Below, piece by piece: positions 895 to 64,000 of a stretch of DNA of 64,000 nucleotides. A model generated the notes under the pieces. It saw nothing but the letters and a program-made list of their open reading frames with translations. It was not told where the DNA came from and did not search any database. The stretch lies in NCBI GenBank assembly GCA_949289265.1, contig CASENE010000060.1:1-64000 (forward strand), given 5' to 3'. Position 1 is the stretch's first letter. Every line of letters starts with the position of its first letter. The stretch comes from an uncultured Bacteroides sp. Lineage in GTDB: Bacteria; Bacteroidota; Bacteroidia; Bacteroidales; Bacteroidaceae. Made by a program: the position numbers and the translations under genes.

Positions 895-982
895 GACCCA
901 GCGTTCTACTTCCCGCTACCCAGCACTGAAGTCCCAGCGACCGGGCGCTTAAGTCCCAGCAGCCGGGAGATAGAATCCCCGC
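895..982. repeat. 22-bp palindromic-core tandem array, locus 1 (4 degenerate units)
   Basis: Four consecutive 22-bp units at 895, 917, 939 and 961. The third is the best preserved, with core GGGCGCTTAAGTCCC. The other two are degenerate at the GGG block. Confidence 0.7.
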
Positions 983-1018
983 CCGGCATGACCGGGAAAA
1001 CTATTTTCAAGCAAAGAC

Positions 1019-1156
1019 ACTCGTAGCCCGTAGCTTGTAGCTCGTAGCTAAAAAAACACTCGTAGCTCGTAGCTTGTAGCTCGTAGCTAAAAAACACTCG
1101 TAGCTCGTAGCTCGTAACTCGTAGCTAAAAACACTCGTAACTCGTAGCTAAAAAAA
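1019..1156. repeat. CTCGTAG heptad array
   Basis: Direct repeats of the 7-mer CTCGTAG (variants CTTGTAG, CTCGTAA), grouped in blocks separated by CTAAAAAACA. The last block ends a few bases before the stop codon of the receptor gene at 1158. Unlike the other families it is direct, not inverted. Confidence 0.85.
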
Positions 1157-1157
1157 C

Positions 1158-3482
1158 CTACATGCGGCTGCGCTGTTCCTGCCCGGCGCCCGTGCCCTTG
1201 TACTTGCTCTTGGCGGGGTTGAACTTGTAGCGGAGGGTGAGGGTGAAGACGCGGCGGGTCTGCTGGTCGAGGCGCATGGTGCGGTTGCCGCTGAAGAGGG
1301 TGACATCGTTGTCGCTGGAGCTGAAGAGGTCGCGCCCTTGCAGTTGCAGGCTGAGGCGCTCGCCGAGGAACGCCTTGCGCAGGCTGAAGTCGAGCGACCA
1401 AGGGATGTTGTTGATGTGGGCATTCTCGTTGTCGCCGGGCGTGTCGAGCGAAGCGTCCACGTCCAGCAGCAGTCCCCACGGCAGGCGGAAGTTGTTGCGC
1501 CAGCTGAAACTGCCCATCGGGCTGTTGAAGTTCTTCTGCGTGCCGCCGGGCATATCCACCTTATACCATTGCTGGAGCAGCATCAGCGTGAGCTGGGGCG
1601 ACCAGGGGCCGATGGTGGGCGACAGGCTGAGGGTGGCGTAGAGCTTGTCGGAGTCATACTTGTTGAAGTAGCTTAGCAGCATGATGGTGGGGTCGTCCGC
1701 CGAGTAAGAGCTGCCCAGATTCACAATGGCGTCCTTGGCGTGGATGTAGCGGGCGTTGAAGTATATCCACTTCCAGGAGGCATCCAGGGACAGGCGGTTG
1801 ATGACGGAGGGACGAAGCAGGGGATTGCCGCCCTCGTAGGTGTAGCGGTTGATGTAGGTGATGTTGCTGCGCAGCATATAATAAGTAGGACGGTAGATGC
1901 TGCCGGTGTAGCTCAGCGAGAGTTGTGCCTTGCCCACGGGCAGGGAGAGGGCGAGGGAGGGAAAGACGTTGTCGTAGGTGCGGCTCTGGTCGTCCATGCG
2001 GACCTTGTTCTCGTAGTAGTCCGACGCCAGGTGCTCGTAGCGCACGCCCGCCTGGGCTTGCACTGGGCCGAAGGCGCGGGCATACTCCAGGAAGGCGGAG
2101 GCGTTGTTCTCGCGGATGTTGCTGTGGTCGTCGTCCAGGATGCCTTGGGGATTGACGTAGGTGTTCACGTGGTCGGTGTAGGTATATTCCCCGCCAAAGG
2201 AGAGGTTGCCCTGCCACAAGGGGCGGCTGACGACGAGCTTGGCGGCGTAGAGGGTGTTCTCGTCCTTGTTGTAGGTGGTGACGTTCTGCTCCTGCGGGTC
2301 TTCGCCGGTGGTGGCGTATCGCTCCAGCATGTCCTGCAGGGTCTTGTCGTACGCCCACAGGCCGTCGGCATTGAAATCGATGTTCCAGTCGCCCGCCTGC
2401 CCGTTGTAGTAGACGTTGAGGGTATGGCTGGTTCCGGGGAGGCTTTGCCAGCCTTGGCTGGTGTTGTCCTCGTAGGGCGTGCCGTCCTGCAGCACCCGGG
2501 TGCGCATGTCTACGTCCCATCGGCTACGGGGCGTGCGGTCGTAGTCGTAGCGGGCGCCGACGGAGTGGCGGTCGTTGAACTGGTAGTTGAGGGAGAGCCT
2601 GGCGGAGAGGTTCCGGCTGTCGCCCCCGGTACGCAGGTCGCTCTCCTGCCGCCACGTCTTGTCGAGGAAGGTCTCTTGGAAGACCGACTTGTTGTCCTCC
2701 CGCTCCGTCTTCGAGCCGAAGAGCATGGCGCCCAGGTCGAAGCCGCCTTTGCGGTAGTTCACGTTCAGCTGGTCGAGCACGTTCCAGCCGTATTGATACT
2801 GGGTGCGAAAGCGGTTGTTCACGCCGAAGCCCTCGCCCTGCGGCCGCTTGGTGTAGATGCGCACCACGGCCTTCACCTCGGCGTCATACCGCGCACCGGG
2901 GTTGCGCACCACCTCCACGCGCCGGATGTTGTCAGACGACAGCTGGTCCAGCTCCGCGGCGTCGCGCATCTTGCGCCCGTTGATGTAGATTTCCGCCGTG
3001 CCGCTGCCGAAGACGTTCACCGTCCCCTCGTCGGCCGACACGCCGGGCAGCTTGTTCAGCAGGTCGTTGCCCGTGCCGGCCTGCTCCAGGATGCTGCCCT
3101 GCACGGTGGTCACCTGCGCGTCGCCCTTCAGCCTCACCTTGGGCAGGTCGGCCTTCACCACCACCTCGCCCAACATCTGCGCGTCGGGCTGCAGTTGGAG
3201 CGTGCCGAGGTCTTGCCCCGTACATTCCTTATAGAGAGTCGTATAACCGATGGAAGAGATGCGGATGACTCGGTTCTGGCACGTAGAGTTCAGGGCGAAC
3301 GTGCCGTCGTCGCCGCTCACCACGCCCGCCACGAACGCGGAGTCCGGCAGAGAGAGCAGCACGATGTTGGCATACGGCAGGGGTTGGCGGTTCTCGTCGA
3401 TGAGTTTTCCCGTGAGGGACTGCGCCCGCAAGGCGCAGGCGGCCAGCAGGGCGAGGCAGAGGAGTGCGATTCGTCGTTTCAT
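1158..3482 (-). CDS. TonB-dependent-receptor-like outer-membrane beta-barrel protein
   Basis: 774 residues when started at MKRRIALLCLALL, which gives a clear signal peptide ending CALRAQ; a longer in-frame ATG at 3581 would bury the signal and is less likely. Residues about 22-105 form a carboxypeptidase-regulatory-like beta-sandwich (GKLIDENRQPLPYANIVL). About 110-220 is a plug-like segment with LLNKLPGVSADEG and EIYINGRKM. The rest is aromatic-rich alternating sequence typical of the OMP_b-brl_3 barrel (PF14905) class. These proteins lack the classic SusC size and partner; no SusD lies nearby. The ligand is unknown. It is a monocistronic minus-strand gene with its own promoter, flanked by inverted copies of the MITE-like repeat. 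Confidence 0.85.
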   Translation of the reverse strand: MKRRIALLCLALLAACALRAQSLTGKLIDENRQPLPYANIVLLSLPDSAFVAGVVSGDDGTFALNSTCQNRVIRISSIGYTTLYKECTGQDLGTLQLQPDAQMLGEVVVKADLPKVRLKGDAQVTTVQGSILEQAGTGNDLLNKLPGVSADEGTVNVFGSGTAEIYINGRKMRDAAELDQLSSDNIRRVEVVRNPGARYDAEVKAVVRIYTKRPQGEGFGVNNRFRTQYQYGWNVLDQLNVNYRKGGFDLGAMLFGSKTEREDNKSVFQETFLDKTWRQESDLRTGGDSRNLSARLSLNYQFNDRHSVGARYDYDRTPRSRWDVDMRTRVLQDGTPYEDNTSQGWQSLPGTSHTLNVYYNGQAGDWNIDFNADGLWAYDKTLQDMLERYATTGEDPQEQNVTTYNKDENTLYAAKLVVSRPLWQGNLSFGGEYTYTDHVNTYVNPQGILDDDHSNIRENNASAFLEYARAFGPVQAQAGVRYEHLASDYYENKVRMDDQSRTYDNVFPSLALSLPVGKAQLSLSYTGSIYRPTYYMLRSNITYINRYTYEGGNPLLRPSVINRLSLDASWKWIYFNARYIHAKDAIVNLGSSYSADDPTIMLLSYFNKYDSDKLYATLSLSPTIGPWSPQLTLMLLQQWYKVDMPGGTQKNFNSPMGSFSWRNNFRLPWGLLLDVDASLDTPGDNENAHINNIPWSLDFSLRKAFLGERLSLQLQGRDLFSSSDNDVTLFSGNRTMRLDQQTRRVFTLTLRYKFNPAKSKYKGTGAGQEQRSRM

Positions 3483-3556
3483 GAGTTCTGTTCGTTTTAA
3501 TGGGTCATTTTGCTTCCTTAGACGGGCATACCGCCCGATCCGTTGCATTGCGGGTG

Positions 3557-3564
3557 CAAAATTA
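3557..3564 (-). promoter_or_regulatory. Bacteroidetes-type -7 element for the outer-membrane receptor gene
   Basis: TAATTTTG on the minus strand matches TAnnTTTG, 75 bp from the chosen ATG at 3482. This supports the shorter start, because the alternative start at 3581 would lie upstream of the promoter. Confidence 0.6.
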
Positions 3565-3686
3565 GCGCATTCCTCCGGCACGGCCGCGCGATACGCCTCT
3601 ACAGCCGGACAAGCCTAAAACAACGATTATCAGCCGGATAAAGGAGCTTTGGCGTGGGGACTTCTATACTTTTAGTGACGAGAGGG

Positions 3687-8890: not shown

Positions 8891-8978
8891 AAGCGGGCGT
8901 TATAACTCCGGCAAGCGGGGACTATAGTCCCGGCCGGCGGGGAGTTAAGTCCCAGCAGGCGGGCATTATAACCCCAGC
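8891..8978. repeat. 22-bp palindromic-core tandem array, locus 2 (4 units)
   Basis: Units start at 8891, 8913, 8935 and 8957. Unit 2 contains the perfect palindrome GGGACTATAGTCCC. Unit 4 overlaps the last codons and the TAA stop of the MarR gene. Confidence 0.9.
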
Positions 8979-9358
8979 AGGCGGACGACTTCGCGCCCGT
9001 CCGCGTCGCGCGACAGTTCCAGGCCGGGGGGCAGGTCGAGCCCCTGCTCCTTCAGGCGGGACAGCAGGGCGCGGCCCTTGCGGGTGAGGGCGAAGAACAT
9101 CTGCCGCTTGTCCTCCCGGCCCAGGCGGCGCGCCACGAGGCCCTTGTCTTCCACGGCGCGCAGGGTCTTCGAGGCGTGCGAGGCGGTGAGGCCCGTGCAG
9201 GCCACCACGTCGCCCGCCGACAGCGTGTCGTCGCCCAGGCTGCACATCACCATCGCCTCGTTCAGCGTCAGTCCGTAGGCCTCGGCCAAGCGCGCCTCCA
9301 GAGCGGCCAGGGCCTTCAGGAGGTCGCGCATGGCGCAAATACACAATATCTTTTCCAT
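8966..9358 (-). CDS. MarR-family transcriptional regulator
   Basis: 130 residues. The winged-helix pattern is clear: LTLNEAMVMCSL, then LSAGDVVACTGLTASHASKTLRAVEDKGLVARR (recognition helix) and the wing REDKRQMFFALTRKGRALL. MarR dimers repress promoters and are often released by small molecules or oxidation. Cysteines at about 6, 8, 39 and 54 make a thiol-redox switch conceivable; this is inference. It lies 9 bp downstream of the sulfur-transfer flavoprotein gene on the same strand, so it is almost certainly co-transcribed and probably regulates it. The C-terminal GL and the stop codon are encoded by the 22-bp repeat. Confidence 0.88.
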   Translation of the reverse strand: MEKILCICAMRDLLKALAALEARLAEAYGLTLNEAMVMCSLGDDTLSAGDVVACTGLTASHASKTLRAVEDKGLVARRLGREDKRQMFFALTRKGRALLSRLKEQGLDLPPGLELSRDADGREVVRLLGL

Positions 9359-13585: not shown

Positions 13586-14818
13586 ATGGTACTAAACTAC
13601 ATCTGGGTGGCGTTCTTCGTCATAGCCTTCGTCGTGGCGCTGGGAAAGCTGCTGCTGACGGGCGACACCGCCATCTTCACCGAACTGGTGAACTCCACGT
13701 TCGCCTCGTCAAAGAACGCCTTCGAGATTTCGCTGGGGCTGACGGGCCTGCTATCGCTGTGGCTGGGTCTGATGAAGATTGGCGAGAACAGCGGCATGAT
13801 CAGCGCCCTGTCGCGCTGGCTCAGCCCCGTGTTCTGCCGCCTCTTCCCCGACATCCCCAAGGGACATCCCGCCATGGGCTCCATCTTCATGAACCTCTCG
13901 GCCAACATGCTGGGACTGGACAACGCCGCCACCCCCCTGGGCCTGAAGGCCATGAAGGAGCTGCAGGAGCTGAACCCGCGCAAGGACACGGCCACCAACC
14001 CGATGATCATGTTCCTCGTCATCAACACGTCGGGACTGATACTCATCCCGGTGAGCATCATGATGTATCGCGCGCAGCTGGGCGCGGCGCAGCCCACGGA
14101 CATCTTCATCCCCACGCTGCTCACCTCGGCCGTCTCGACCACGGTGGGCGTCATAGCCGTCAGCCTCGCGCAACGCATCAACCTGCTGTGCCGACCCATC
14201 CTCATCCTGGTGGGGTGCATCAGCGTGTTCTTCGCCGCGCTCGTCTGGCTGTTCGTCAGCGTGGGGCGCGACGAGATGGGCACCTGGTCCACGCTGGCGG
14301 CCAACGTCATCCTGTTCTGCATCATCCTGCTGTTCATCGTGTGGGGGCTGTGGAAGCGCATCAATGTCTACGACGCCTTCATCGAGGGGGCCAAGGAAGG
14401 ATTCACCACCGCCGTGCGCATCATCCCCTACCTGGTGGCCTTCCTGGTGGGCATCGCCGTGTTCCGCTCGTCGGGCGCGATGGACCTGCTCATCGACGGC
14501 ATCCGCCAGGCGGTGGCCCTGTGCGGCATCGACACCAGCTTTGTGGGCGCGCTGCCCACGGCCCTGATGAAAGCCCTGAGCGGCAGCGCGGCCAACGGGC
14601 TGATGATAGACACGATGGAACAGTACGGCGCCGACTCGTTCGTGGGCCGCATGAGCTGCGTGGCCCGCGGCGCGAGCGACACGACGTTCTACATCCTGGC
14701 CGTCTACTTCGGCAGCGTGGGCATCACCAAGACGCGCAACGCCGTGACCTGCGGGCTGATAGCCGACCTGTCGGGCGTCGTCGCGGCCATCGTCATCAGC
14801 TACCTGTTCTTCTTCTGA
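13586..14818 (+). CDS. SpmA-SpmB fused nucleoside-recognition (Gate) domain membrane protein
   Basis: 410 residues, with about ten hydrophobic helices. It carries two Gate (nucleoside-recognition) modules: residues about 40-170 (SLGLTGLLSLWLGLMKIGENSG, SANMLGLDNAATPLG) resemble SpmA and about 260-410 (GLMIDTMEQYGADSFVGRMSC, RGASDTTFYILAVYFGSVG) resemble SpmB. In spore formers SpmA/SpmB help dehydrate the spore core; in Bacteroidales, which do not sporulate, the role is unknown, and transport of a nucleoside or related solute is only a guess. The TGA stop shares its last two bases with the first unit of a 22-bp array. Confidence 0.85.
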   Translation: MVLNYIWVAFFVIAFVVALGKLLLTGDTAIFTELVNSTFASSKNAFEISLGLTGLLSLWLGLMKIGENSGMISALSRWLSPVFCRLFPDIPKGHPAMGSIFMNLSANMLGLDNAATPLGLKAMKELQELNPRKDTATNPMIMFLVINTSGLILIPVSIMMYRAQLGAAQPTDIFIPTLLTSAVSTTVGVIAVSLAQRINLLCRPILILVGCISVFFAALVWLFVSVGRDEMGTWSTLAANVILFCIILLFIVWGLWKRINVYDAFIEGAKEGFTTAVRIIPYLVAFLVGIAVFRSSGAMDLLIDGIRQAVALCGIDTSFVGALPTALMKALSGSAANGLMIDTMEQYGADSFVGRMSCVARGASDTTFYILAVYFGSVGITKTRNAVTCGLIADLSGVVAAIVISYLFFF

Positions 14819-14904
14819 CCGGGGACTACTGCGCCACCGACCGGGCGTTACTACGCCAGCGGGCGGGGAGTACTATGCCAGCGGGCGGGGATTATAAGGC
14901 CAGG
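14817..14904. repeat. 22-bp palindromic-core tandem array, locus 3 (4 units)
   Basis: Units start at 14817, 14839, 14861 and 14883. The first unit begins at the G of the preceding gene's TGA stop. Confidence 0.9.
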
Positions 14905-14997: not shown

Positions 14998-15423
14998 ATG
15001 ATTACCTACCAAACCGAAGGCGTGGCCCTGCCCGACATCGACCGCAGGCAGACCACCGAATGGATCAAGGCCGTGGCAGCCAGCTACGGCAAGCGCGTGG
15101 GCGACATCGCCTACATCTTTTGCTCGGACGAGAAGATTCTGGAGGTGAACCGACAGTATCTGCAGCACGACTATTACACGGACATCATCACCTTCGACTA
15201 TTGCGAGGGCAACCGCCTCAACGGCGACCTCTTCATCAGCCTGGACACCGTGCGCACCAACGCCGAGCAGTTCGCCGACGGCGACTACCGCCGCGAACTG
15301 CACCGCGTCATCATCCACGGCATCCTGCACCTGTGCGGCATCAACGACAAGGGCCCGGGCGAACGCGAAATCATGGAGGCGGCCGAGAACCGGGCACTGG
15401 CGTTGAGAGGCAGGGATGAGTGA
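14998..15423 (+). CDS. ybeY: Endoribonuclease YbeY (rRNA maturation factor)
   Basis: 141 residues. The zinc site reads HGILHLCGINDKGPGE, a variant of the usual HGxLHLxGxDH in which the last His is replaced but two His remain. Upstream are the typical DIAYIFCSDEKILEVNRQYL and DIITFDYCEGNRLNGDLFIS segments. YbeY trims the 16S rRNA 3' end and supports ribosome quality control. The gene is convergent with the GH78 gene. Its final codons (RDE) and TGA run straight into a TAATCAC-family repeat. Confidence 0.93.
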   Translation: MITYQTEGVALPDIDRRQTTEWIKAVAASYGKRVGDIAYIFCSDEKILEVNRQYLQHDYYTDIITFDYCEGNRLNGDLFISLDTVRTNAEQFADGDYRRELHRVIIHGILHLCGINDKGPGEREIMEAAENRALALRGRDE

Positions 15424-15575
15424 TTAGTGATTAGGGGTTAGTGATTAGTGATTAATACGTGCGAACAAGACTCGCGTGCAACCCGTTTTCCATTCACCAT
15501 TAATCACTAACCCCTAATCACTAATCCCTAACCCCTAATCACTCATCCCTAATCACTAACCCCTAATCACTAATC
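15417..15575. repeat. TAATCAC-family long hairpin between convergent genes
   Basis: The left arm is GATTAGTGATTAGGGGTTAG-type heptads; the right arm is TAATCACTAACCCCTAATCAC-type. About 60 bp without the repeat separate them. The repeat touches the stop codons of both ybeY (+) and the GH78 gene (-), so it may act as a bidirectional transcript end. Confidence 0.85.
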
Positions 15576-18171
15576 AACGCGTCACCGTGTAGCTGCCTGC
15601 GGCATATTCCGTGGCCACGGTGTCGCCCGGCAGGGTGACGGAGGCCGTGCAGCCTTCGGGGATGGTGAACTGCCAGGTCCAGGTGTCGCCCTCGTAGCGC
15701 CAGGCACTCTTGATGAGCCCGGCCGCCGAGCGGTAGGAAGCCTCCAGGTGTCCCAGCCGCTTGTCGGGGACGGGCTTCATGAGGATGTGGCGGAAGCCGG
15801 GCCGGGCGGGGTCGGCGGCGATGCCTGCCACGCTCTCCCACAGCCACTGGCACACCACGCCGTAGGCATAGTGGTTGAAGCTGTTCATGCCCTGCGGGCC
15901 CATGCCCTTGTCGGCCATGTAGCTGTTCCACCGCTCCCAGATGGTGGTGGCGCCGTTGTCCACGGAGTAGAGCCAGCTGGGGTTCTTACGCTGCAGCAGC
16001 AGTTCCCAGGCGATGTCGGCCATGCCGTGGTCGGTGAGCGTGGGCAGCAGGATGGACGTACCCAGGAAGCCGGTCTGCAGGCAGTTGCCGTGGTCGGCGA
16101 AGTTCTGCCGCAGGCGTGCGACGAGTGCCTCCTTCTGCGCGCCCTCCAGGATGCCGTTTTTCAGGGCAAAGAGGGCCGGGGTCTGCATGGTGTTGAGGAT
16201 GGCGGTCTTGAACTGTCCGTCGGGCGTGAAGAAGCGTTGACGGATGTAGGCTTTCGCCTCGTCCGCCATCTGCGCGTAGCGGGCGGCGGCGCGCCCGGTG
16301 GCGGCGGCCATGTCGCGCATCATGCCCGCGTCTATCAGCCAGTAGGACGCGCTCAGGTAGTTCCAATAGTCCACGGCCTCGGGCAGGGGGCCCACGTTGC
16401 CGCGCGCGTCGGGCCCGAAGGCGCCGCCCCCGCAGCTCTCCAGGGGCTCGTAGCTCAGCCAGTCGGCCCACTGGTAGTTCAGGTTCTCGGCCCGGAGCAC
16501 ATTGTGGTCATAGCGGGTTTCGGCCACGTGGCTGATGAACTTCTCCATGGCATCCCAGCACTGGTTGACGATGGCCGTGTCGGCAAACTGCTTCCACACC
16601 GTCCAGGGCACGATGATGCCGGCGTCGGCCCATCCCAGGCGCATCATGTCGTTGCCATACTGGGCCAGCGGCGCCACGCCGGGGAAGCCGCCCGTGTCGC
16701 TCTGCGAGTCCGTCATGTCGCGCATCCACTTGCGAAAGAAGGCGTCGGTGCGGGCAAAGAAGGTGCCCGTCTCGGCAAACACCTGCGTGTCCGCCGTCCA
16801 GCCCAGCCGCTCGTTGCGCTGCGGGCAGTCGGTGGGCACGGAGAGGTAGTTGGAGCGCATTCCCCACACCGTGTTTGCTATCAGGCGGTTGACCAGCTCG
16901 TTGCCCGTGGCGAGGGTGCCGGTCTCCATCTCGCGGCTGACCGAGGTGACGGGCACCGAGCGCAGGCGGCTGATGCGCACCGTGTCCGAGGCCTGGATGG
17001 AGACGTAGCGATAGCCGAAGAAGGTGCTGCGCGGGCAGAAGTCCACGTAGCCGCCGGACGGGCCGAAGGTGTAGGTCAGCCTCATCGCCGTGTGCGGCTG
17101 ACGCAGGTTGAGGCGGTGCACGCTGCCCTCGGGGCCGTCCATCCCGCGGCTCTTGGCGCCGTTGCCGTCGTTCAGCAGCTCGCCCGGCAGACATTCCAGC
17201 ACGGTGCCTTCGGGGGCATGGAACACGAACGAGGGCACGCCCGCGCAGTTCTGACCGAAGTCCACCACCAACTGTTCGCCCGGCACGGCCACCAGCGTGT
17301 CTCCGGCCTTGTACGTGCGGGTGACCACCACCTTGCCGTAGGCATCCTTGCCCGCGCCCGTCACTCCCTTCCAGCGGTAGGCCGCTGCGGGCTCCAGGGC
17401 CAGGTCGGCGCGCAGGTAGACCTCCGCGCCCGCCGAAGGCACGATTTCGCCGCGAAACTCGTTGTTGACTTCCGGCGCAGACAACCTTTCGGGCGTGTCA
17501 TAGCCGGGCAGGATGCGCGCGTCATAGTCCTCGCCGTCGAAGATGCCCGCGTGGGTCACGGGGCCGGCTATGCCCGCCTTCCAGCACGTGGTGTCCGTGC
17601 CATACAGCTGTCGGCTTCCGTCGGCGTAGGTCAGTTCGAGGACGGCGCGGAAGGCGCACTTCTTGCCCACCATCCCGTCGTGTCCGTAGGGCGTCACAAT
17701 CTTGTCGGCCCACCATCCGGGAGTCACCTGCGCGGCCAGCACGTTCTCCTCGCCCGCCCCGGTGCGGAAGGCCGCCGTGACGTCGTAGGTGAACGACAGG
17801 CGGGTCTTCAGCGGATGGGTGAAGCCGGGCTTCAGGATTTCGTCGCCTATGCGTTGGCCGTTGACGTAGATTTCGTGCACACCCAGGCTGGTGGCCATCC
17901 AGCGGGCGGAGACCACCTCCTGGTCGTTCTTCAGGGAGGCGACGAACCAGCTGGCTCCGTCGGCGGCCCGCGTTTCGTCGGTGACGGGGCCGCTCACCAC
18001 CGGCGCATCGGCCACCGAAATCCACGACGACGACTCCCAGGCAACAGGGTTCAATGCTTCGACGCGATGAACGCCGCCCGACGCTTTAACAGCACAAGCG
18101 CTTACGGCGCATCCTACAATGCCGGCCAAGACCAGCCTGACGACAGTCCTTACTGATTGTTTGTGTTTCAT
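15574..18171 (-). CDS. Alpha-L-rhamnosidase, GH78 family
   Basis: 865 residues. A signal with lipobox AVSAC (Cys26) suggests membrane anchoring. The N-terminal half holds the beta-sandwich modules of GH78 (YVNGQRIGDEILKPGFTHP, WWADKIVTPYGHDG). The alpha/alpha barrel includes PTDCPQRNERLGWTADTQVF at about 440-457, the GH78 signature with the predicted acid in NERLGW, and WERWNSYMADKGMGPQGMNSFNHYAYG near the C-terminus. It removes terminal alpha-L-rhamnose from pectic chains, gums or glycosides. It is the last gene of the PUL operon, about 90 bp after the epimerase gene, with a hairpin terminator in the gap, so part of its transcription could be independent. Confidence 0.93.
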   Translation of the reverse strand: MKHKQSVRTVVRLVLAGIVGCAVSACAVKASGGVHRVEALNPVAWESSSWISVADAPVVSGPVTDETRAADGASWFVASLKNDQEVVSARWMATSLGVHEIYVNGQRIGDEILKPGFTHPLKTRLSFTYDVTAAFRTGAGEENVLAAQVTPGWWADKIVTPYGHDGMVGKKCAFRAVLELTYADGSRQLYGTDTTCWKAGIAGPVTHAGIFDGEDYDARILPGYDTPERLSAPEVNNEFRGEIVPSAGAEVYLRADLALEPAAAYRWKGVTGAGKDAYGKVVVTRTYKAGDTLVAVPGEQLVVDFGQNCAGVPSFVFHAPEGTVLECLPGELLNDGNGAKSRGMDGPEGSVHRLNLRQPHTAMRLTYTFGPSGGYVDFCPRSTFFGYRYVSIQASDTVRISRLRSVPVTSVSREMETGTLATGNELVNRLIANTVWGMRSNYLSVPTDCPQRNERLGWTADTQVFAETGTFFARTDAFFRKWMRDMTDSQSDTGGFPGVAPLAQYGNDMMRLGWADAGIIVPWTVWKQFADTAIVNQCWDAMEKFISHVAETRYDHNVLRAENLNYQWADWLSYEPLESCGGGAFGPDARGNVGPLPEAVDYWNYLSASYWLIDAGMMRDMAAATGRAAARYAQMADEAKAYIRQRFFTPDGQFKTAILNTMQTPALFALKNGILEGAQKEALVARLRQNFADHGNCLQTGFLGTSILLPTLTDHGMADIAWELLLQRKNPSWLYSVDNGATTIWERWNSYMADKGMGPQGMNSFNHYAYGVVCQWLWESVAGIAADPARPGFRHILMKPVPDKRLGHLEASYRSAAGLIKSAWRYEGDTWTWQFTIPEGCTASVTLPGDTVATEYAAGSYTVTR

Positions 18172-25417: not shown

Positions 25418-25461
25418 CGCCGGGGACTATAGTCCCAGCCGGCGGGAGTTATAAGGCCCGG
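25418..25461. repeat. 22-bp palindromic-core tandem array, locus 4 (2 units)
   Basis: Two units at 25418 and 25440; the first contains GGGACTATAGTCCC. The array lies about 30 bp past the SusD stop codon. Confidence 0.85.
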
Positions 25462-30911: not shown

Positions 30912-30999
30912 GACCGGGCGTTACAGTCCCCGCCGGCTGGGACTACAGTCCCCGCTCGCTGGAGTTATAACGCCAGCAAGCGGGGATTATAAGGCCAGG
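30912..30999. repeat. 22-bp palindromic-core tandem array, locus 5 (4 units)
   Basis: Units start at 30912, 30934, 30956 and 30978. The array is 26 bp downstream of the HTCS stop and upstream of the susC promoter. Confidence 0.9.
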
Positions 31000-34960: not shown

Positions 34961-34966
34961 GTAGGG

Positions 34967-35161
34967 ATGAGTGATTAGGGGTTAGTGATTAGGGGTTAGG
35001 GGTTAGTGATTAGTGATTAATGTTTAGCGATGAGGGATTAGGGGTTAGCGAGATAAGGGATTAGGGGTTAGTGATTAGTGATTAATAACGAAGCCAAGCA
35101 CGGAACACTAATCACTTATCACTAAACACTAATCACTAATCACTAAACCCTAATCCCTAAA
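34967..35161. repeat. TAATCAC-family long hairpin upstream of the HTCS gene
   Basis: The left arm (about 34967-35083) is GTGATTAG/GGGTTAG heptads. The right arm (about 35105-35161) is TAATCAC/TAAACAC heptads. It fills the whole gap from the HTCS ATG to within about 10 bp of the GH2 stop codon. Confidence 0.85.
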
Positions 35162-40430: not shown

Positions 40431-40518
40431 GACCGGGCGTTATAATTCCAGCGACCGGGGACTATAGTCCCAGCGACCGGGCGTTACTATCCCGGCAAGC
40501 TGGAGCCATAGTCCCAGG
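40431..40518. repeat. 22-bp palindromic-core tandem array, locus 6 (4 units)
   Basis: Units start at 40431, 40453, 40475 and 40497. The second contains GGGACTATAGTCCC. Confidence 0.9.
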
Positions 40519-45236: not shown

Positions 45237-45324
45237 GACCGGGCGTTACTATCCCACCGACCGGGGACTACTACGCCACCGACCGGGCGCTACTACGCCA
45301 GCAAGCGGGCATTACTACCCCAGC
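45237..45324. repeat. 22-bp palindromic-core tandem array, locus 7 (4 units)
   Basis: Units start at 45237, 45259, 45281 and 45303, between uvrC and the dtd promoter. Confidence 0.9.
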
Positions 45325-45872: not shown

Positions 45873-46065
45873 TAGTGATTAGTGTTTAGTGATTAGGGGT
45901 TAATACGTATGCCGGCTTCCGCTTGTCGCTATTCCGCCGAACACTCATCACTAATCACTAACCCCTAATCACTAATCACTAAACCCTAATCACTAATCCC
46001 CGCTCCGCCAATCACTAATCACTAAACACTCATCACTCATCACTAACCCCTAATCACTAATCCCC
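45873..46065. repeat. TAATCAC-family long hairpin between dtd and the MazG-like gene
   Basis: The left arm GTGATTAGTGTTTAGTGATTAG... (45873-45903) is separated by about 40 bp from a longer right arm of TAATCAC, TAACCCC and TAAACAC heptads. The right arm ends at the base before the GTG start of the next gene. Confidence 0.85.
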
Positions 46066-54147: not shown

Positions 54148-54235
54148 GACCGGGCGTTACTGTCCCACCGACCGGGCATTACTATCCCAGCAAGCGGGCG
54201 TTACTACGCCAGCCGGCGGGAACTATAGCCCCAGG
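54148..54235. repeat. 22-bp palindromic-core tandem array, locus 9 (4 units)
   Basis: Units start at 54148, 54170, 54192 and 54214. Confidence 0.9.
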
Positions 54236-57927: not shown

Positions 57928-58097
57928 TGATTAGTGATTAATAACGGGCCAAGCACGGAACATTAATCACTAATCACTAACCATTAATCACTCATCACTA
58001 ATCATTAATCACTACTCCCTAACATTAATCACTAACCGCTCACCACTAAACACTAATCACTAACATTAACCACTCATCACTAACCGCTAACCGCTCA
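57914..58097. repeat. TAATCAC-family long hairpin between the PanE-like gene and lgt
   Basis: A short left arm (GTTTAGCGTTTAGTGATTAG) overlaps the PanE-like stop codon. A long right arm of about 130 bp of TAATCAC/TAACCGC/TAAACAC heptads ends 7 bp before the lgt ATG. Confidence 0.85.
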
Positions 58098-59064: not shown

Positions 59065-59152
59065 GACCTGGCGTTATAATCCCCGCCGGCTGGGACTTAA
59101 GTCCCCGGTCGCGGGAGTTATAATGCCAGGTCGGCGGAGTTATAATGCCCGC
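59065..59152. repeat. 22-bp palindromic-core tandem array, locus 10 (4 units)
   Basis: Units start at 59065, 59087, 59109 and 59131. Unit 2 has the perfect palindrome GGGACTTAAGTCCC. The last unit ends exactly one base before the mutS stop codon (59153-59155). Confidence 0.92.
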
Positions 59153-61777
59153 TCAGCGGCCCCGCACGATGCGCTTGATGTCGTTCAACTTGTTCAGCGC
59201 TTCCAGCGGAGTGAGGTTGTCGACGTCGAGGTTCAGGATTTCGTCGCGGATTTGGCAGAGCACGGGGTCTTCCAGTTGGAAGAAGCTGAGCTGCATGCCC
59301 CCGGCCGAGGCGGCCCCTTCGGTGATGGTCTTGCCGCTGACGGCGCCGGCCTGGCGGTTTTCCTGCTCCAGCTGGTGCAGGATTTCGTCGGCGCGGCGCA
59401 CAATGCTTTTGGGCATGCCGGCCATTCGCGCCACGTGGATGCCAAAGCTGTGTTCGCTGCCGCCCCGCTCCAGGCGACGGAGGAAGATGACGCGGTTGTC
59501 CACCTCTTTGACGGCCACGTTGTAGTTCTTGATGCGGCGGAAGCTCTTCTCCATCTCGTTCAGCTCGTGGTAGTGCGTGGCAAAGAGGGTGCGTGCCCGC
59601 GCCCGGGGGTGCTCGTGGATGTATTCCACGATGGCCCAGGCGATGGAGATGCCGTCGTAGGTGGACGTGCCGCGCCCCAGTTCGTCAAACAGGACCAGGC
59701 TGCGGGGCGAGAGGTTGTTGAGGATATTGGCCGCCTCGTTCATCTCTACCATGAAGGTGGACTCGCCCACCGATATGTTGTCGCTGGCGCCCACGCGGGT
59801 GAATATCTTGTCCACCAGCCCCACGTGCGCGCTCTCTGCCGGCACGAAGCTGCCGATTTGCGCCATCAGGGTGATGAGGGCCGTCTGGCGCAGGAGGGCC
59901 GATTTGCCGGCCATGTTGGGTCCGGTGATGATGATGATTTGTTGGGTTTCCGTGTCCAGGAGCACATCGTTGGCCACGTAGACTTCGCCGGCAGGCAGCT
60001 GGCGCTCAATGACAGGATGCCGGCCTTGGCGTATGTCCAGCACGTCGTCGGCGGCGATGACGGGGCGGATATACTTGTTGTCGCGCGCCACGGTGGCGAA
60101 CGACAGCAGGCAGTCCAGGCGGGCCAGCTGGTTGGCGTCTATCTGGATGGGCGGGATAAAGTCCACCAGGGCCTGCACCAACTCGTTGTACAGCTGCCCT
60201 TCGAGCACCAGTATCTTGTCTTCCGCCCCCAGGATTTTCTCTTCGTATTCCTTCAGTTCCTGCGTGATATATCGCTCGGCGTTGGCCAAAGTCTGCTTGC
60301 GTATCCACTCGGGCGGCACCTTGTCCTTGTGGGTGTTTCGCACCTCGATGTAGTAGCCGAAAACGTTGTTGTATCCAATCTTCAGGCTGGGGATGCCCGT
60401 CTGCTCGCTCTCGCGCTGCTGGAGCTGCAGCAGGTAGTCCTTGCCCGAATAGGCGATGCGGCGCAGCTCGTCCAGCTCGCTGTTGAAGCCCGTGCGGATG
60501 ACGCCCCCCTTGTTGACCATCAGGGGCGGGTCGCTGTTGATTTCGCGTTCGATGCGGTCGCGCACGGACTGGCACAGGTTCAGCTGCTCGCCAATGTGGT
60601 TCAGGCTGGCGTTATCAGCCTCCAGGCAGGCGTTTTTGATGGGCTCGACGGCCTGTAGGGCTGTCTTGAGGGCCACCAGTTCGCGGGGCGAGACGCGCCC
60701 CACGGCCACCTTGGACAGGATGCGTTCCATGTCGCCCACGCGGCGCAGCTGGTCTTCCACCAAGTCCTTGAAGTCGGGGTGGCGGAAGAAGTACTCCACC
60801 ACGTCCAACCGCGCGTCGATGGGCCGCTTGTCCTTCAGGGGAAAGAGCAGCCAGCGCTTCAGCAGGCGGGCGCCCATGGGGCAGATGGTCTTGTCGATGA
60901 CGCCCAGCAGGCTGCTTCCGCCCTCGTTCATCGGGGCTGTCAGCTCCAGGCTGCGCACGGTGAACTTGTCCAGGCGGACGTATTTGTCTTCCTCGATGCG
61001 GGCCAGCGACGTGATGTGTCCGGTCTGCGTGTGCTGCGTCAGGATGAGGTATTGCAGGATGGCCCCGGAGGCGATGATGCCGTTGACCAGTTGGTCTACG
61101 CCGAAGCCCTTCAGGTTCTTCACCTCGAAGTGCTTCAGCAGCCGCTCGCGGGCGGTGGATTCGGTGAACACCCAGTCGTCCAGCTCGTAGGTAAAGAATT
61201 TGTTGCCAAAGCAGCTCTCGAACTGTGCCCGCTTGCCGCGCTCAAACAGCACCTCCTTGGGGCCAAAATTTGCCAGCAGCTTGTCCACCTGGTCGGCGGT
61301 GCCTTCGGCCGTCAGGAACTCGCCCGTAGAAATATCCAGGAACGACACTCCACACACCCGCCCCTTGCCAAAATGCACGGCGGCCAGGAAGTTGTTTTCC
61401 TTGTAGTTCAGCACGTTGTCGTTGATGGAGACGCCGGGCGTCACCAGCTCGGTGATTCCCCGCTTCACCAACTTCTTGGCCAGTTTCGGGTCTTCCAGCT
61501 GGTCGCAGATGGCCACGCGCTTGCCTGCCCGGATGAGCTTGGGCAAATACGTGTCGAGCGCGTGGTGCGGAAAGCCCGCCATCTCGATGGTCTGCCCGCC
61601 CTTGCCGTTGTTGCGCTTGGTCAGGGTGATGCCCAGTATCTCGGCGGCCACCACGGCATCGGTCGAATAGGTCTCGTAGAAGTCCCCGCAGCGGAACAGC
61701 ATCACGGCGTCCGGGTGCTTGGCCTTGAGGTCGAGAAACTGCTTCATCATGGGGGTGAGAACGATGTCTTTGTCCAT
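59153..61777 (-). CDS. mutS: DNA mismatch repair protein MutS
   Basis: 874 residues. Mismatch-binding N-terminus with [10 protein letters not shown] (Phe-x-Glu), connector and lever domains, Walker [14 protein letters not shown] at about 619, Walker [23 protein letters not shown] and [10 protein letters not shown]. The C-terminal helix-turn-helix ([24 protein letters not shown]) ends within a few residues of the stop. MutS recognises mismatches and recruits MutL. A -7 element (61861-61868) lies upstream, and a 22-bp array abuts its stop. Confidence 0.98.
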
Positions 61778-62068: not shown

Positions 62069-62074
62069 CAATGT

Positions 62075-62137
62075 GTTTTTCATAGTATTAGATTTAAGGT
62101 TAACAAAAGGTTGGGCTCGGCGGAGCCCATTTTTTTT
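62075..62137 (+). ncRNA. Predicted short RNA of about 63 nt
   Basis: A complete promoter is followed by an AT-rich stretch (with TAGATTTAAGGTTAAC) and then a terminator hairpin: GGGCTC/GAGCCC at 62113-62128 with eight Ts. No gene follows on this strand, so the transcript should be free-standing. I cannot place it in a known RNA family; it might also be an orphaned leader. Confidence 0.65.
62113..62137 (+). terminator. Terminator of the predicted short RNA
   Basis: GGGCTC GGCG GAGCCC hairpin followed by ATTTTTTTT. Confidence 0.85.
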
Positions 62138-62194
62138 GCCCGTACCCCGCGAGGGGACTCCCCGCCCCGGCCGGAGGGACATGCCGGGAGGGCA

Positions 62195-63924: not shown

Positions 63925-64000
63925 GACCGGGCATTACTATGCCCGCTTGCGGGGACTACCGTGCCAGCCTGCCGGGACTACTGTGCCAGCCGCCGGGGAT
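63925..64000. repeat. 22-bp palindromic-core tandem array, locus 11 (at least 3 units, cut by window edge)
   Basis: Units start at 63925, 63947 and 63969; a fourth begins at 63991 and runs off the window. Confidence 0.9.

What the first reader, a model, noticed from the sequence alone, without database searches (positions are those of the whole stretch)
8891..8978. New-looking family of 22-bp tandem repeats with palindromic cores, eleven loci in 64 kb
Seen at 895, 8891, 14817, 25418, 30912, 40431, 45237, 49658, 54148, 59065 and 63925, about 42 units in all. Each unit is roughly GGG, 8 bp, CCC, 8 bp. The 8-bp core is often self-complementary (ACTATAGT, ACTTAAGT) and the spacer is GC-rich and variable. 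Eight of eleven arrays have exactly four units. Many start with GACC and end with CAGG, which suggests defined ends rather than random slippage. Units differ from each other but keep the GGG/CCC frame. This is not a CRISPR layout and I know of no named family that fits.
Basis: seen in the sequence. Interest (0 to 1): 0.8.

Follow-up and report, generated by a model that had tools for sequence, protein, structure and literature searches.

The report
Self-spacing four-site chromosome repeat arrays
This gut bacterium carries more than a hundred short intergenic arrays, usually of four 22-bp sites, that almost never lie within 3.7 kb of another array of their own family, and relatives show other words in a similar layout; they are likely docking sites for an unidentified DNA-binding protein that would bend or wrap the chromosome at intervals.

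Summary
All eleven arrays exist. In 797 kb of the host genome (a Bacteroides-clade bacterium) there are 69 arrays with 281 units, 45 of them with exactly four units, against 0 in the reversed-sequence control. Unit spacing is 22 bp in 210 of 212 steps. C-N-GG ... CC-N-G is nearly invariant while other positions vary, which implies selection in place. The two arms mostly vary independently, so a paired hairpin is unlikely. Arrays keep apart: 1 of 57 neighbour distances is under 3.7 kb, against 15.9 expected (0 of 5000 simulations). A relative with an unrelated motif repeats this (2 of 59 against 11.4), and other repeat families show no such avoidance. A second family, found only in this genome of 157 searched, has exactly four 21-bp sites in 13 of 13 copies read, flanked by A-tracts in the same phase. 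In 3.5 Mb of this genome and relatives, tandem repeats peak sharply at 22 bp with differing words. The nearest relative had no array in 60 kb. I read the arrays as operator-like sites for family-specific proteins, probably wrapping or anchoring the chromosome. No protein was identified; the two conserved Lrp/AsnC candidates look excluded. A mobile element with self-immunity is the main rival.

The parts
895..982 (+). array 1, 4 units (the weakest four-unit array; its first unit is found only at the lower threshold), 175 nt beyond the 3' end of a minus-strand TonB-receptor-like gene (1158-3581)
8891..8978 (+). array 2, 4 units (the finding's coordinates); its last 13 bp overlap the 3' end of a predicted minus-strand ORF (8966-9358)
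14817..14904 (+). array 3, 4 units, starting inside the stop codon of the plus-strand Gate-domain gene 13586-14818
25418..25461 (+). array 4, 2 units, between a SusD-family gene and a GH43 gene
30912..30999 (+). array 5, 4 units, between a hybrid two-component regulator gene and a TonB-dependent receptor (SusC-like) gene
40431..40518 (+). array 6, 4 units, between the GH20 and mnmG (GidA) genes
45237..45324 (+). array 7, 4 units, 8 nt after the uvrC stop codon
49660..49769 (-). array 8, 5 units, between the divergent polyprenyl synthetase and polA genes; this gap is 289 nt here, 86-90 nt without a detected array in 12 relative records, and 314 nt with an array in G088
54148..54235 (+). array 9, 4 units, before an outer-membrane beta-barrel protein gene
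59067..59154 (-). array 10, 4 units, between the convergent lgt and mutS genes (overlaps the end of mutS by 2 bp)
63925..64000 (+). array 11, 4 units, cut by the window end (continues to contig position 64012), upstream of the tyrosyl-tRNA synthetase gene

Best explanation
These are intergenic arrays of usually four 22-bp sites, almost never within 3.7 kb of another array of their own family, and they are likely docking sites for an unidentified family-specific DNA-binding protein that is predicted to sit as about four dimers on one face of the helix and would bend or wrap the chromosome there. Shown: the arrays, the 22-bp lock, near-invariant C.GG/CC.G letters, mostly independent half-sites, intergenic placement, the same-family exclusion zone in two species with unrelated words, and AT-rich sequence roughly in step with the array for about 66 bp into both flanks. 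Inferred: a bound protein, its number of dimers, wrapping or bending, and that the exclusion zone reflects one complex being enough (or allowed) per few kb. Each lineage seems to have gained its own words, probably through changes in the binding protein.
For: Profile and control: 69 arrays, 281 units, 0 in reversed DNA; 45 of 69 have four units; 210 of 212 unit steps are exactly 22 bp. Invariant letters at 98-99% beside positions at 44-81% are hard to reconcile with neutral decay. Arms: pair 8-17 pairs less than chance (z -4.5), 9-16 at chance (z -1.7); G-U 73 against A-C 62 on the sense strand. Family 2 half-sites also do not covary (z -1.3, -3.2 and -1.1). Placement: 32 of 33 arrays intergenic, no convergent/divergent bias; in 20 co-directional gaps the median is 50 nt after the stop codon and never under 82 nt before the next start; 64 of 69 by a second gene prediction. 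Exclusion: 1 of 57 distances under 3.7 kb against 15.9 (0 of 5000); G114, unrelated motif, 2 of 59 against 11.4 (0 of 5000). Family-specific: 13 of 34 other 21-23-bp arrays lie within 3.7 kb of a main array against 13.9 expected. Flank AT-phasing at 23-66 bp: P 3/2000 and 0/2000. Family 2: 13 of 13 elements read with exactly four 21-bp units, A-tracts every 21 bp outward. Period peak at 22 in 3.5 Mb of this genome and relatives (90 arrays; 2 at 20, 7 at 24), with long dyads enriched only at 21-23 bp.
Against: No binding protein was found. The obvious candidates with the right stoichiometry (recalled), octameric Lrp/AsnC proteins, number two in G000; their helix-turn-helix is the same in all species read, whatever the words, and also in G101, which lacks arrays in the part examined. 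Pair 10-15 does covary (z +7.0), and in 31 other families double changes are 10 against 4.3 expected, 8 of them complementary, so some pairing constraint is possible. The nearest relative (G101) has no array in 60 kb, so the function is dispensable or recently gained. An exclusion zone is also what transposition immunity would give. Spacing is not more even than chance in every dense contig (C77, P 474/3000), and the exclusion is weaker in the small samples of G016 and G088. The flank phasing peak is broad (periods 18-22 similar). No binding, structure or expression data exist here.
Confidence: 0.45

Rival explanations
1. A small non-autonomous mobile element (MITE-like, BrickBuilt-like) inserted by a transposase acting in trans, whose target immunity keeps new copies about 4 kb from old ones.
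For: Presence/absence looks like insertion: the polA gap is 86-90 nt in 12 of 13 orthologous records and 289 nt in G000. The families are private or nearly so. Family 2 has inverted ends and fixed length. The exclusion zone is family-specific.
Against: Main-family arrays do not look like copies of a master: units at equal positions are hardly more alike than at other positions (0.654 against 0.642), while units within an array are (0.671 against 0.615 shuffled); best array-to-array identity is 0.808 against 0.783 for shuffled units. Invariant letters at 98-99% in units about 38% diverged suggest selection after insertion. No target duplication or terminal repeat was apparent in the one gap compared by eye, and there is no Y1-type (RAYT) transposase match in G000; other transposase families were not searched. 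Family 2 copies, 85% identical on average, fit this rival better.
Confidence: 0.3
2. RNA-level arrays of small hairpins in 3' untranslated regions that terminate or stabilise transcripts.
For: Units are dyadic; in co-directional gaps arrays often follow stop codons closely; weak compensatory change in other families and at pair 10-15.
Against: Outer arm pairs do not covary, there is no wobble asymmetry on the sense strand, 10 of 32 lie between divergent genes, and family 2 arms do not covary. RNA hairpins do not explain an exclusion zone of several kb.
Confidence: 0.1
3. Uptake or transfer signal: short species dialects that mark self DNA, as in Neisseria or Haemophilus (recalled), accumulated by biased uptake.
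For: Related dialects in G000, G016 and G088, genome-wide spread and over-even spacing.
Against: Signals come as four-site arrays with a sharp lower distance limit; transformation in this genus was not tested; density follows contig GC (rho 0.83, n=12).
Confidence: 0.08
4. Neutral slippage-grown minisatellites.
For: Adjacent units are somewhat more alike (0.700 against 0.646 non-adjacent).
Against: Near-invariant letters, mostly four units, self-exclusion, and four arrays at corresponding places with equal or nearly equal copy numbers in a sister pair at 96% identity.
Confidence: 0.04

Closest known systems
REP/BIME elements of enterobacteria and pseudomonads (with RAYT transposases)
   Same: Extragenic palindromic units of 20-40 bp, more than 100 copies per genome, clustered at regular spacing in alternating orientation, different words per species, linked to chromosome proteins such as gyrase, IHF and Pol I (passages of PMC2817692; PMC3733652, abstract listing and passages).
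   Different: No GTAG/CGTC tag at the foot of the G000 unit (the related G088 word does carry GGTAG/CTACC, but as dyad arms); no Y1 transposase match in G000; four-unit preference; self-exclusion of about 3.7 kb, which I did not see reported for REPs in the passages read.
BrickBuilt MITE of Porphyromonas gingivalis
   Same: A 23-nt tandem repeat between 'leader' and 'tail'; always intergenic; in a member of the same order (abstract and passages of PMC4596501).
   Different: BrickBuilt is about 540 bp on average (10,276 bases in 19 copies), with small inverted-repeat ends and differing repeat numbers; here the array is mostly 66-110 bp with at most one degenerate end unit seen per side.
DNA gyrase binding motif
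   Same: Symmetric, AT/GC phased with the helix over about 130 bp, read as wrapping (passages of PMC6379681).
   Different: Gyrase phasing is 10.75 bp and degenerate; here there are sequence-specific 21-22-bp units with near-invariant letters.
Lrp/AsnC (feast/famine) octamer operators (recalled)
   Same: Four dimers, sites two helical turns apart, DNA wrapping (recalled, no call).
   Different: The helix-turn-helix of both conserved proteins is the same among species whose array words differ.
DNA uptake sequences of Neisseria and Haemophilus (recalled; search listing only)
   Same: Species dialects, genome-wide, over-even spacing (recalled).
   Different: Single 10-12-mers at about 1-kb spacing (recalled) rather than four-site arrays.

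Membership tests
REP/BIME | extragenic palindromic units in more than 100 copies | tested here: met
   281 units in 797 kb; 32 of 33 arrays intergenic
REP/BIME | GTAG or CGTC tag at the foot of the palindrome | tested here: not met
   consensus of 281 G000 units has neither tag; G088's related word has GTAG inside its arms
REP/BIME | RAYT (Y1_Tnp) transposase in the genome | tested here: not met
   0 matches in G000 at 93% completeness; 12 of 60 genus genomes have a match; G088 and G114 were not in that sample
REP/BIME | arms pair as a hairpin | tested here: inconclusive
   two of three informative pairs at or below chance, one above
BrickBuilt MITE | 22-23-nt tandem repeat, intergenic | tested here: met
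BrickBuilt MITE | conserved leader and tail segments with inverted-repeat ends | tested here: not met
   main family: one degenerate 22-bp unit each side and only 8 flank-flank matches, some of them within one locus; family 2 does have inverted ends
CRISPR array | identical repeats with unrelated spacers of similar size | tested here: not met
   units abut at 22 bp and are about 67% identical within an array; cas genes not searched
Lrp/AsnC operators | a reader whose DNA-contacting helix changes with the word | tested here: not met
   two PF01037 proteins in G000; VSRAAIHQR helix same in 10 of 10 genomes, VSGAAIHQR same in 9 of 9 genomes read, including G101 without arrays and G000, G088, G114 with different words; a third group seen in G114, G101 and G021 only was not compared
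Gyrase site | 10.75-bp AT/GC phasing over 130 bp | tested here: inconclusive
   phasing near 20-22 bp found, 10.75 bp not tested
DNA uptake sequence | preferential uptake of marked DNA | not testable with these tools
   needs transformation assays

The most novel reading that the evidence does not exclude
Bacteroides chromosomes carry a self-spacing, nucleosome-like positioning code: sets of about four two-turn operator sites, phased with bendable flanks, each read by its own fast-changing architectural protein that tolerates only one complex per roughly 4 kb, with species replacing the words while keeping the layout.
Probability: 0.25. Interest if true: 0.92.

Novelty: new variant of a known kind. 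Interest (0 to 1): 0.7.

Why it matters
Even spacing of a repeat with a sharp, family-specific lower limit would be evidence for a kb-scale ruler in a bacterial chromosome, either architectural (domains, wrapping) or a transposition-immunity footprint frozen genome-wide. The arrays give ready baits to fish out the binding protein, and the species dialects give a natural experiment in co-evolution of a DNA-binding protein with hundreds of sites.

Tried and rejected
Positional homology across species: unrelated-motif arrays do share gaps (uvrC 3' gap: 6 of 51 records with an array), but after matching for gap length and number of species this is chance (3 observed, 2.76 expected); for the two same-dialect species 3 against 1.05, P 182/5000. 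The raw count (14 both-present of 207 pairs) was misleading because the same long gaps recur.

RAYT/REP route: no Y1_Tnp match in G000. Lrp/AsnC as reader: not supported; a first translation came out in the wrong frame for most of the 22 loci and was repeated (19 of 22 loci read; the other three are a third group). RNA hairpin: mostly not supported, with the exceptions told above. Rfam at gathering thresholds: only a FopS sRNA and a tRNA in the window. Whole-array copy-paste: not supported for the main family. Exclusion in the smaller samples of G016 and G088 is weaker (smallest distances 1671 and 2157 bp) and was not tested statistically. The 3.7-kb threshold was chosen after seeing G000 and then applied unchanged to G114. 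The contigs fetched were picked from those already listed with array hits, so the density of the 797 kb is not a genome average; the whole-genome model search gives at least 112 distinct arrays, from a cut list and with only 150 of 745 candidates scored. E. coli L285 and S. meliloti pSymA L286 were fetched but not analysed; the outgroup control is 50 kb of E. coli and 50 kb of pSymB only.

Full report
WHAT IS THERE. The window is positions 1-64000 of contig C60 of a 3.03-Mb, 108-contig, 93% complete genome. By its DNA polymerase I the nearest named records are Mediterranea sp. An20 (86%) and Bacteroides sp. ET71 (83%; a Ca. Bacteroides record has 84% in its best segment). All eleven arrays are present. 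A 22-column profile refined on the sequence finds 69 arrays and 281 units in 797 kb, none in the reversed DNA; unit numbers 2/3/4/5 occur 1/8/45/15 times, and 210 of 212 steps between units are exactly 22 bp, 21 and 23 having been allowed at a penalty. The unit is two inverted half-sites, C-N-G-G ... C-C-N-G, with an AT-rich centre and a GC-rich spacer. C4, G6, G7, C18 and C19 are at 98-99% and T11 at 93%, while the other positions lie at 44-81%.

WHERE THEY LIE. In the first 464 kb, 32 of 33 arrays are intergenic. Gene orientation is as expected from gap lengths (co-directional 20, divergent 10, convergent 2; expected 21.9, 8.5, 1.6). In co-directional gaps they sit a median 50 nt after the stop codon and never less than 82 nt before the next start. 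With a second gene prediction 64 of 69 have their midpoint in or next to a gap of at least 90 bp. Neighbouring genes in the window are of unrelated function: TonB receptor, SusCD, uvrC, polA, mutS, lgt, tyrosyl-tRNA synthetase.

SELF-EXCLUSION. Among 57 distances between neighbouring arrays only one (2118 bp) is under 3.7 kb (five are under 4 kb); random placement into intergenic gaps gives 15.9 under 3.7 kb on average and never as few as one in 5000 runs. In contigs C60, C108 and C102 the spacing has coefficients of variation of 0.33, 0.27 and 0.35 against 0.77, 0.70 and 0.77 expected (P 10, 0 and 10 of 3000); in C77 it is 0.48 against 0.70 (474 of 3000, not significant). The threshold was set after looking at these data. 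It was then applied unchanged to a second species, G114, whose arrays have an unrelated word: 2 of 59 distances under 3.7 kb against 11.4 expected, 0 of 5000; for G000 the same whole-genome method gives 2 of 56 against 14.6 (null: uniform between first and last array of a contig). The avoidance is family-specific: 34 other 21-23-bp arrays in G000 fall within 3.7 kb of a main array 13 times (13.9 expected), and 33 heptamer arrays 22 times (20.4 expected). Density rises with contig GC (rho 0.83, 12 contigs).

PAIRING OR BINDING. If the dyads were hairpins, arm letters should covary. Over 281 units, pair 8-17 is complementary in 25% (38% expected, z -4.5), 9-16 in 48% (53%, z -1.7), 10-15 in 63% (46%, z +7.0). 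Oriented by gene direction, G-U and A-C mismatches are similar (73 and 62). The same small set of half-site words occurs on both arms. In 31 other families, double changes are more frequent than independence predicts (10 against 4.3, 8 complementary). I conclude that half-sites are read mostly independently in double-stranded DNA, with some reservation.

FLANKS. AT content around the main arrays keeps a two-turn phase for 23-66 bp beyond the array (P 3/2000 upstream, 0/2000 downstream), and fades beyond upstream (732/2000) but not downstream (2/2000 at 67-110 bp); the peak is broad. Conserved letters mark a degenerate unit before the arrays, and 15 of 53 have a conserved 22-bp tail unit.

A SECOND FAMILY. 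The same genome has another set: TAAAT-YY-A...T-RR-ATTTA units of 21 bp. The end pattern occurs 45 times in G000 and in none of 156 other genomes of the genus. In the 25 loci fetched plus my stretches, 13 distinct elements were read and all 13 are 86 bp with exactly four units; a 14th, shorter reading is nested in one of them. Their half-sites also do not covary. A-tracts stand at about 5, 26 and 47 bp outside both ends; 28 of 28 flanks (two from the nested reading) have A at 24-26 bp, and the 21-bp phase is significant (26 flanks, 0/2000). These 13 elements are on average 85% identical, so copying is more plausible for them than for the main family.

ACROSS SPECIES. The G000 word at one mismatch occurs 92 times in G000, twice in one of 36 other same-genus genomes, and once in each of two of 24 genomes of other families; the array model finds weak kin in 7 of 157 others, chiefly G122, G016, G138 and G088. 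G016 and G088 use related words with a similar TACTA-type centre. Over 3.5 Mb of this genome and relatives, tandem repeats peak at 22 bp (21/22/23: 25/90/24; 20 and 24: 2 and 7), and long dyads are enriched only at 21-23 bp (27% of 90 arrays at 22 bp, shuffled 4%; control periods 1% of 109, shuffled 2%). Outside G000 there are 94 such arrays in 42 of 111 records, most with about three TRF copies. The enrichment is weak in other families of the order (1.12 per 100 kb against 0.75 at neighbouring periods); E. coli and pSymB, 50 kb each, had none. The nearest relative by MutS among 149 genomes searched, G101, had none in 60 kb. The polA gap is 86-90 nt without a detected array in 12 orthologous records (11 species if G101 is An20, as equal contig length suggests), 314 nt with an array in G088, and 289 nt in G000, so arrays are gained or lost as inserts. 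In a sister pair at 96% identity four arrays at corresponding places have equal or nearly equal copy numbers.

HOW THEY AROSE. Units within an array are more alike than shuffled units (0.671 against 0.615, z 11.8; adjacent 0.700), but equal positions of different arrays hardly are (0.654 against 0.642). That fits local unit duplication under a motif constraint better than copying of a master array.

INTERPRETATION. Four sites two turns apart, near-invariant contact letters, independent half-sites, phased AT-rich flanks and a self-specific exclusion distance together fit a family-specific protein complex that likely bends or wraps DNA at intervals. The main rival is a mobile element with self-immunity. 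The reader protein is unknown: the two conserved Lrp/AsnC proteins have recognition helices that do not change with the word (10 of 10 and 9 of 9 genomes read), and there is no RAYT match. Papers were seen only as abstracts, passages or listings (PMC4596501, PMC3733652, PMC2817692, PMC6379681, PMC5771137). None of ten searches of that library listed a title that describes these arrays; most subscription journals are not in it.

Noticed in passing
window 15415-15576, 34962-35160, 45942-46062, 57961-58092: Arrays of the heptamer AATCACT (TAATCAC), up to 17 copies; 33 heptamer arrays of several words in 797 kb of the genome. The word resembles the WATCACW heptads bound by plasmid protein omega (recalled).
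   Followed up: partly
window 1013-1154: 38-bp tandem repeat built from CTCGTAG/CTTGTAG heptamers right beside array 1.
   Followed up: no
window 62073-62139: Rfam match to BTncRNA_FopS, a Bacteroidetes family of paralogous small RNAs.
   Followed up: no
L156, L157, L162 downstream of mutS: Between lgt and mutS, three relatives carry a roughly 90-bp inverted-repeat element (seen by eye) instead of an array, and L164 has almost no gap, so this gap has held different inserts.
   Followed up: partly
G000:C58:36754-37079 (L138): Cluster of neighbouring 23-bp dyadic arrays with different words in about 330 bp.
   Followed up: no
G000 arrays, 12 contigs sampled: Array density rises with contig GC (4 per 100 kb at 55%, 9-16 at 60-62%), perhaps a chromosomal-region effect.
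   Followed up: partly
G000 main family and family 2: Opposite half-sites tend to carry different degenerate letters (pair 8-17 z -4.5; family 2 pair 7-13 z -3.2), a heterotypic preference I cannot explain.
   Followed up: partly
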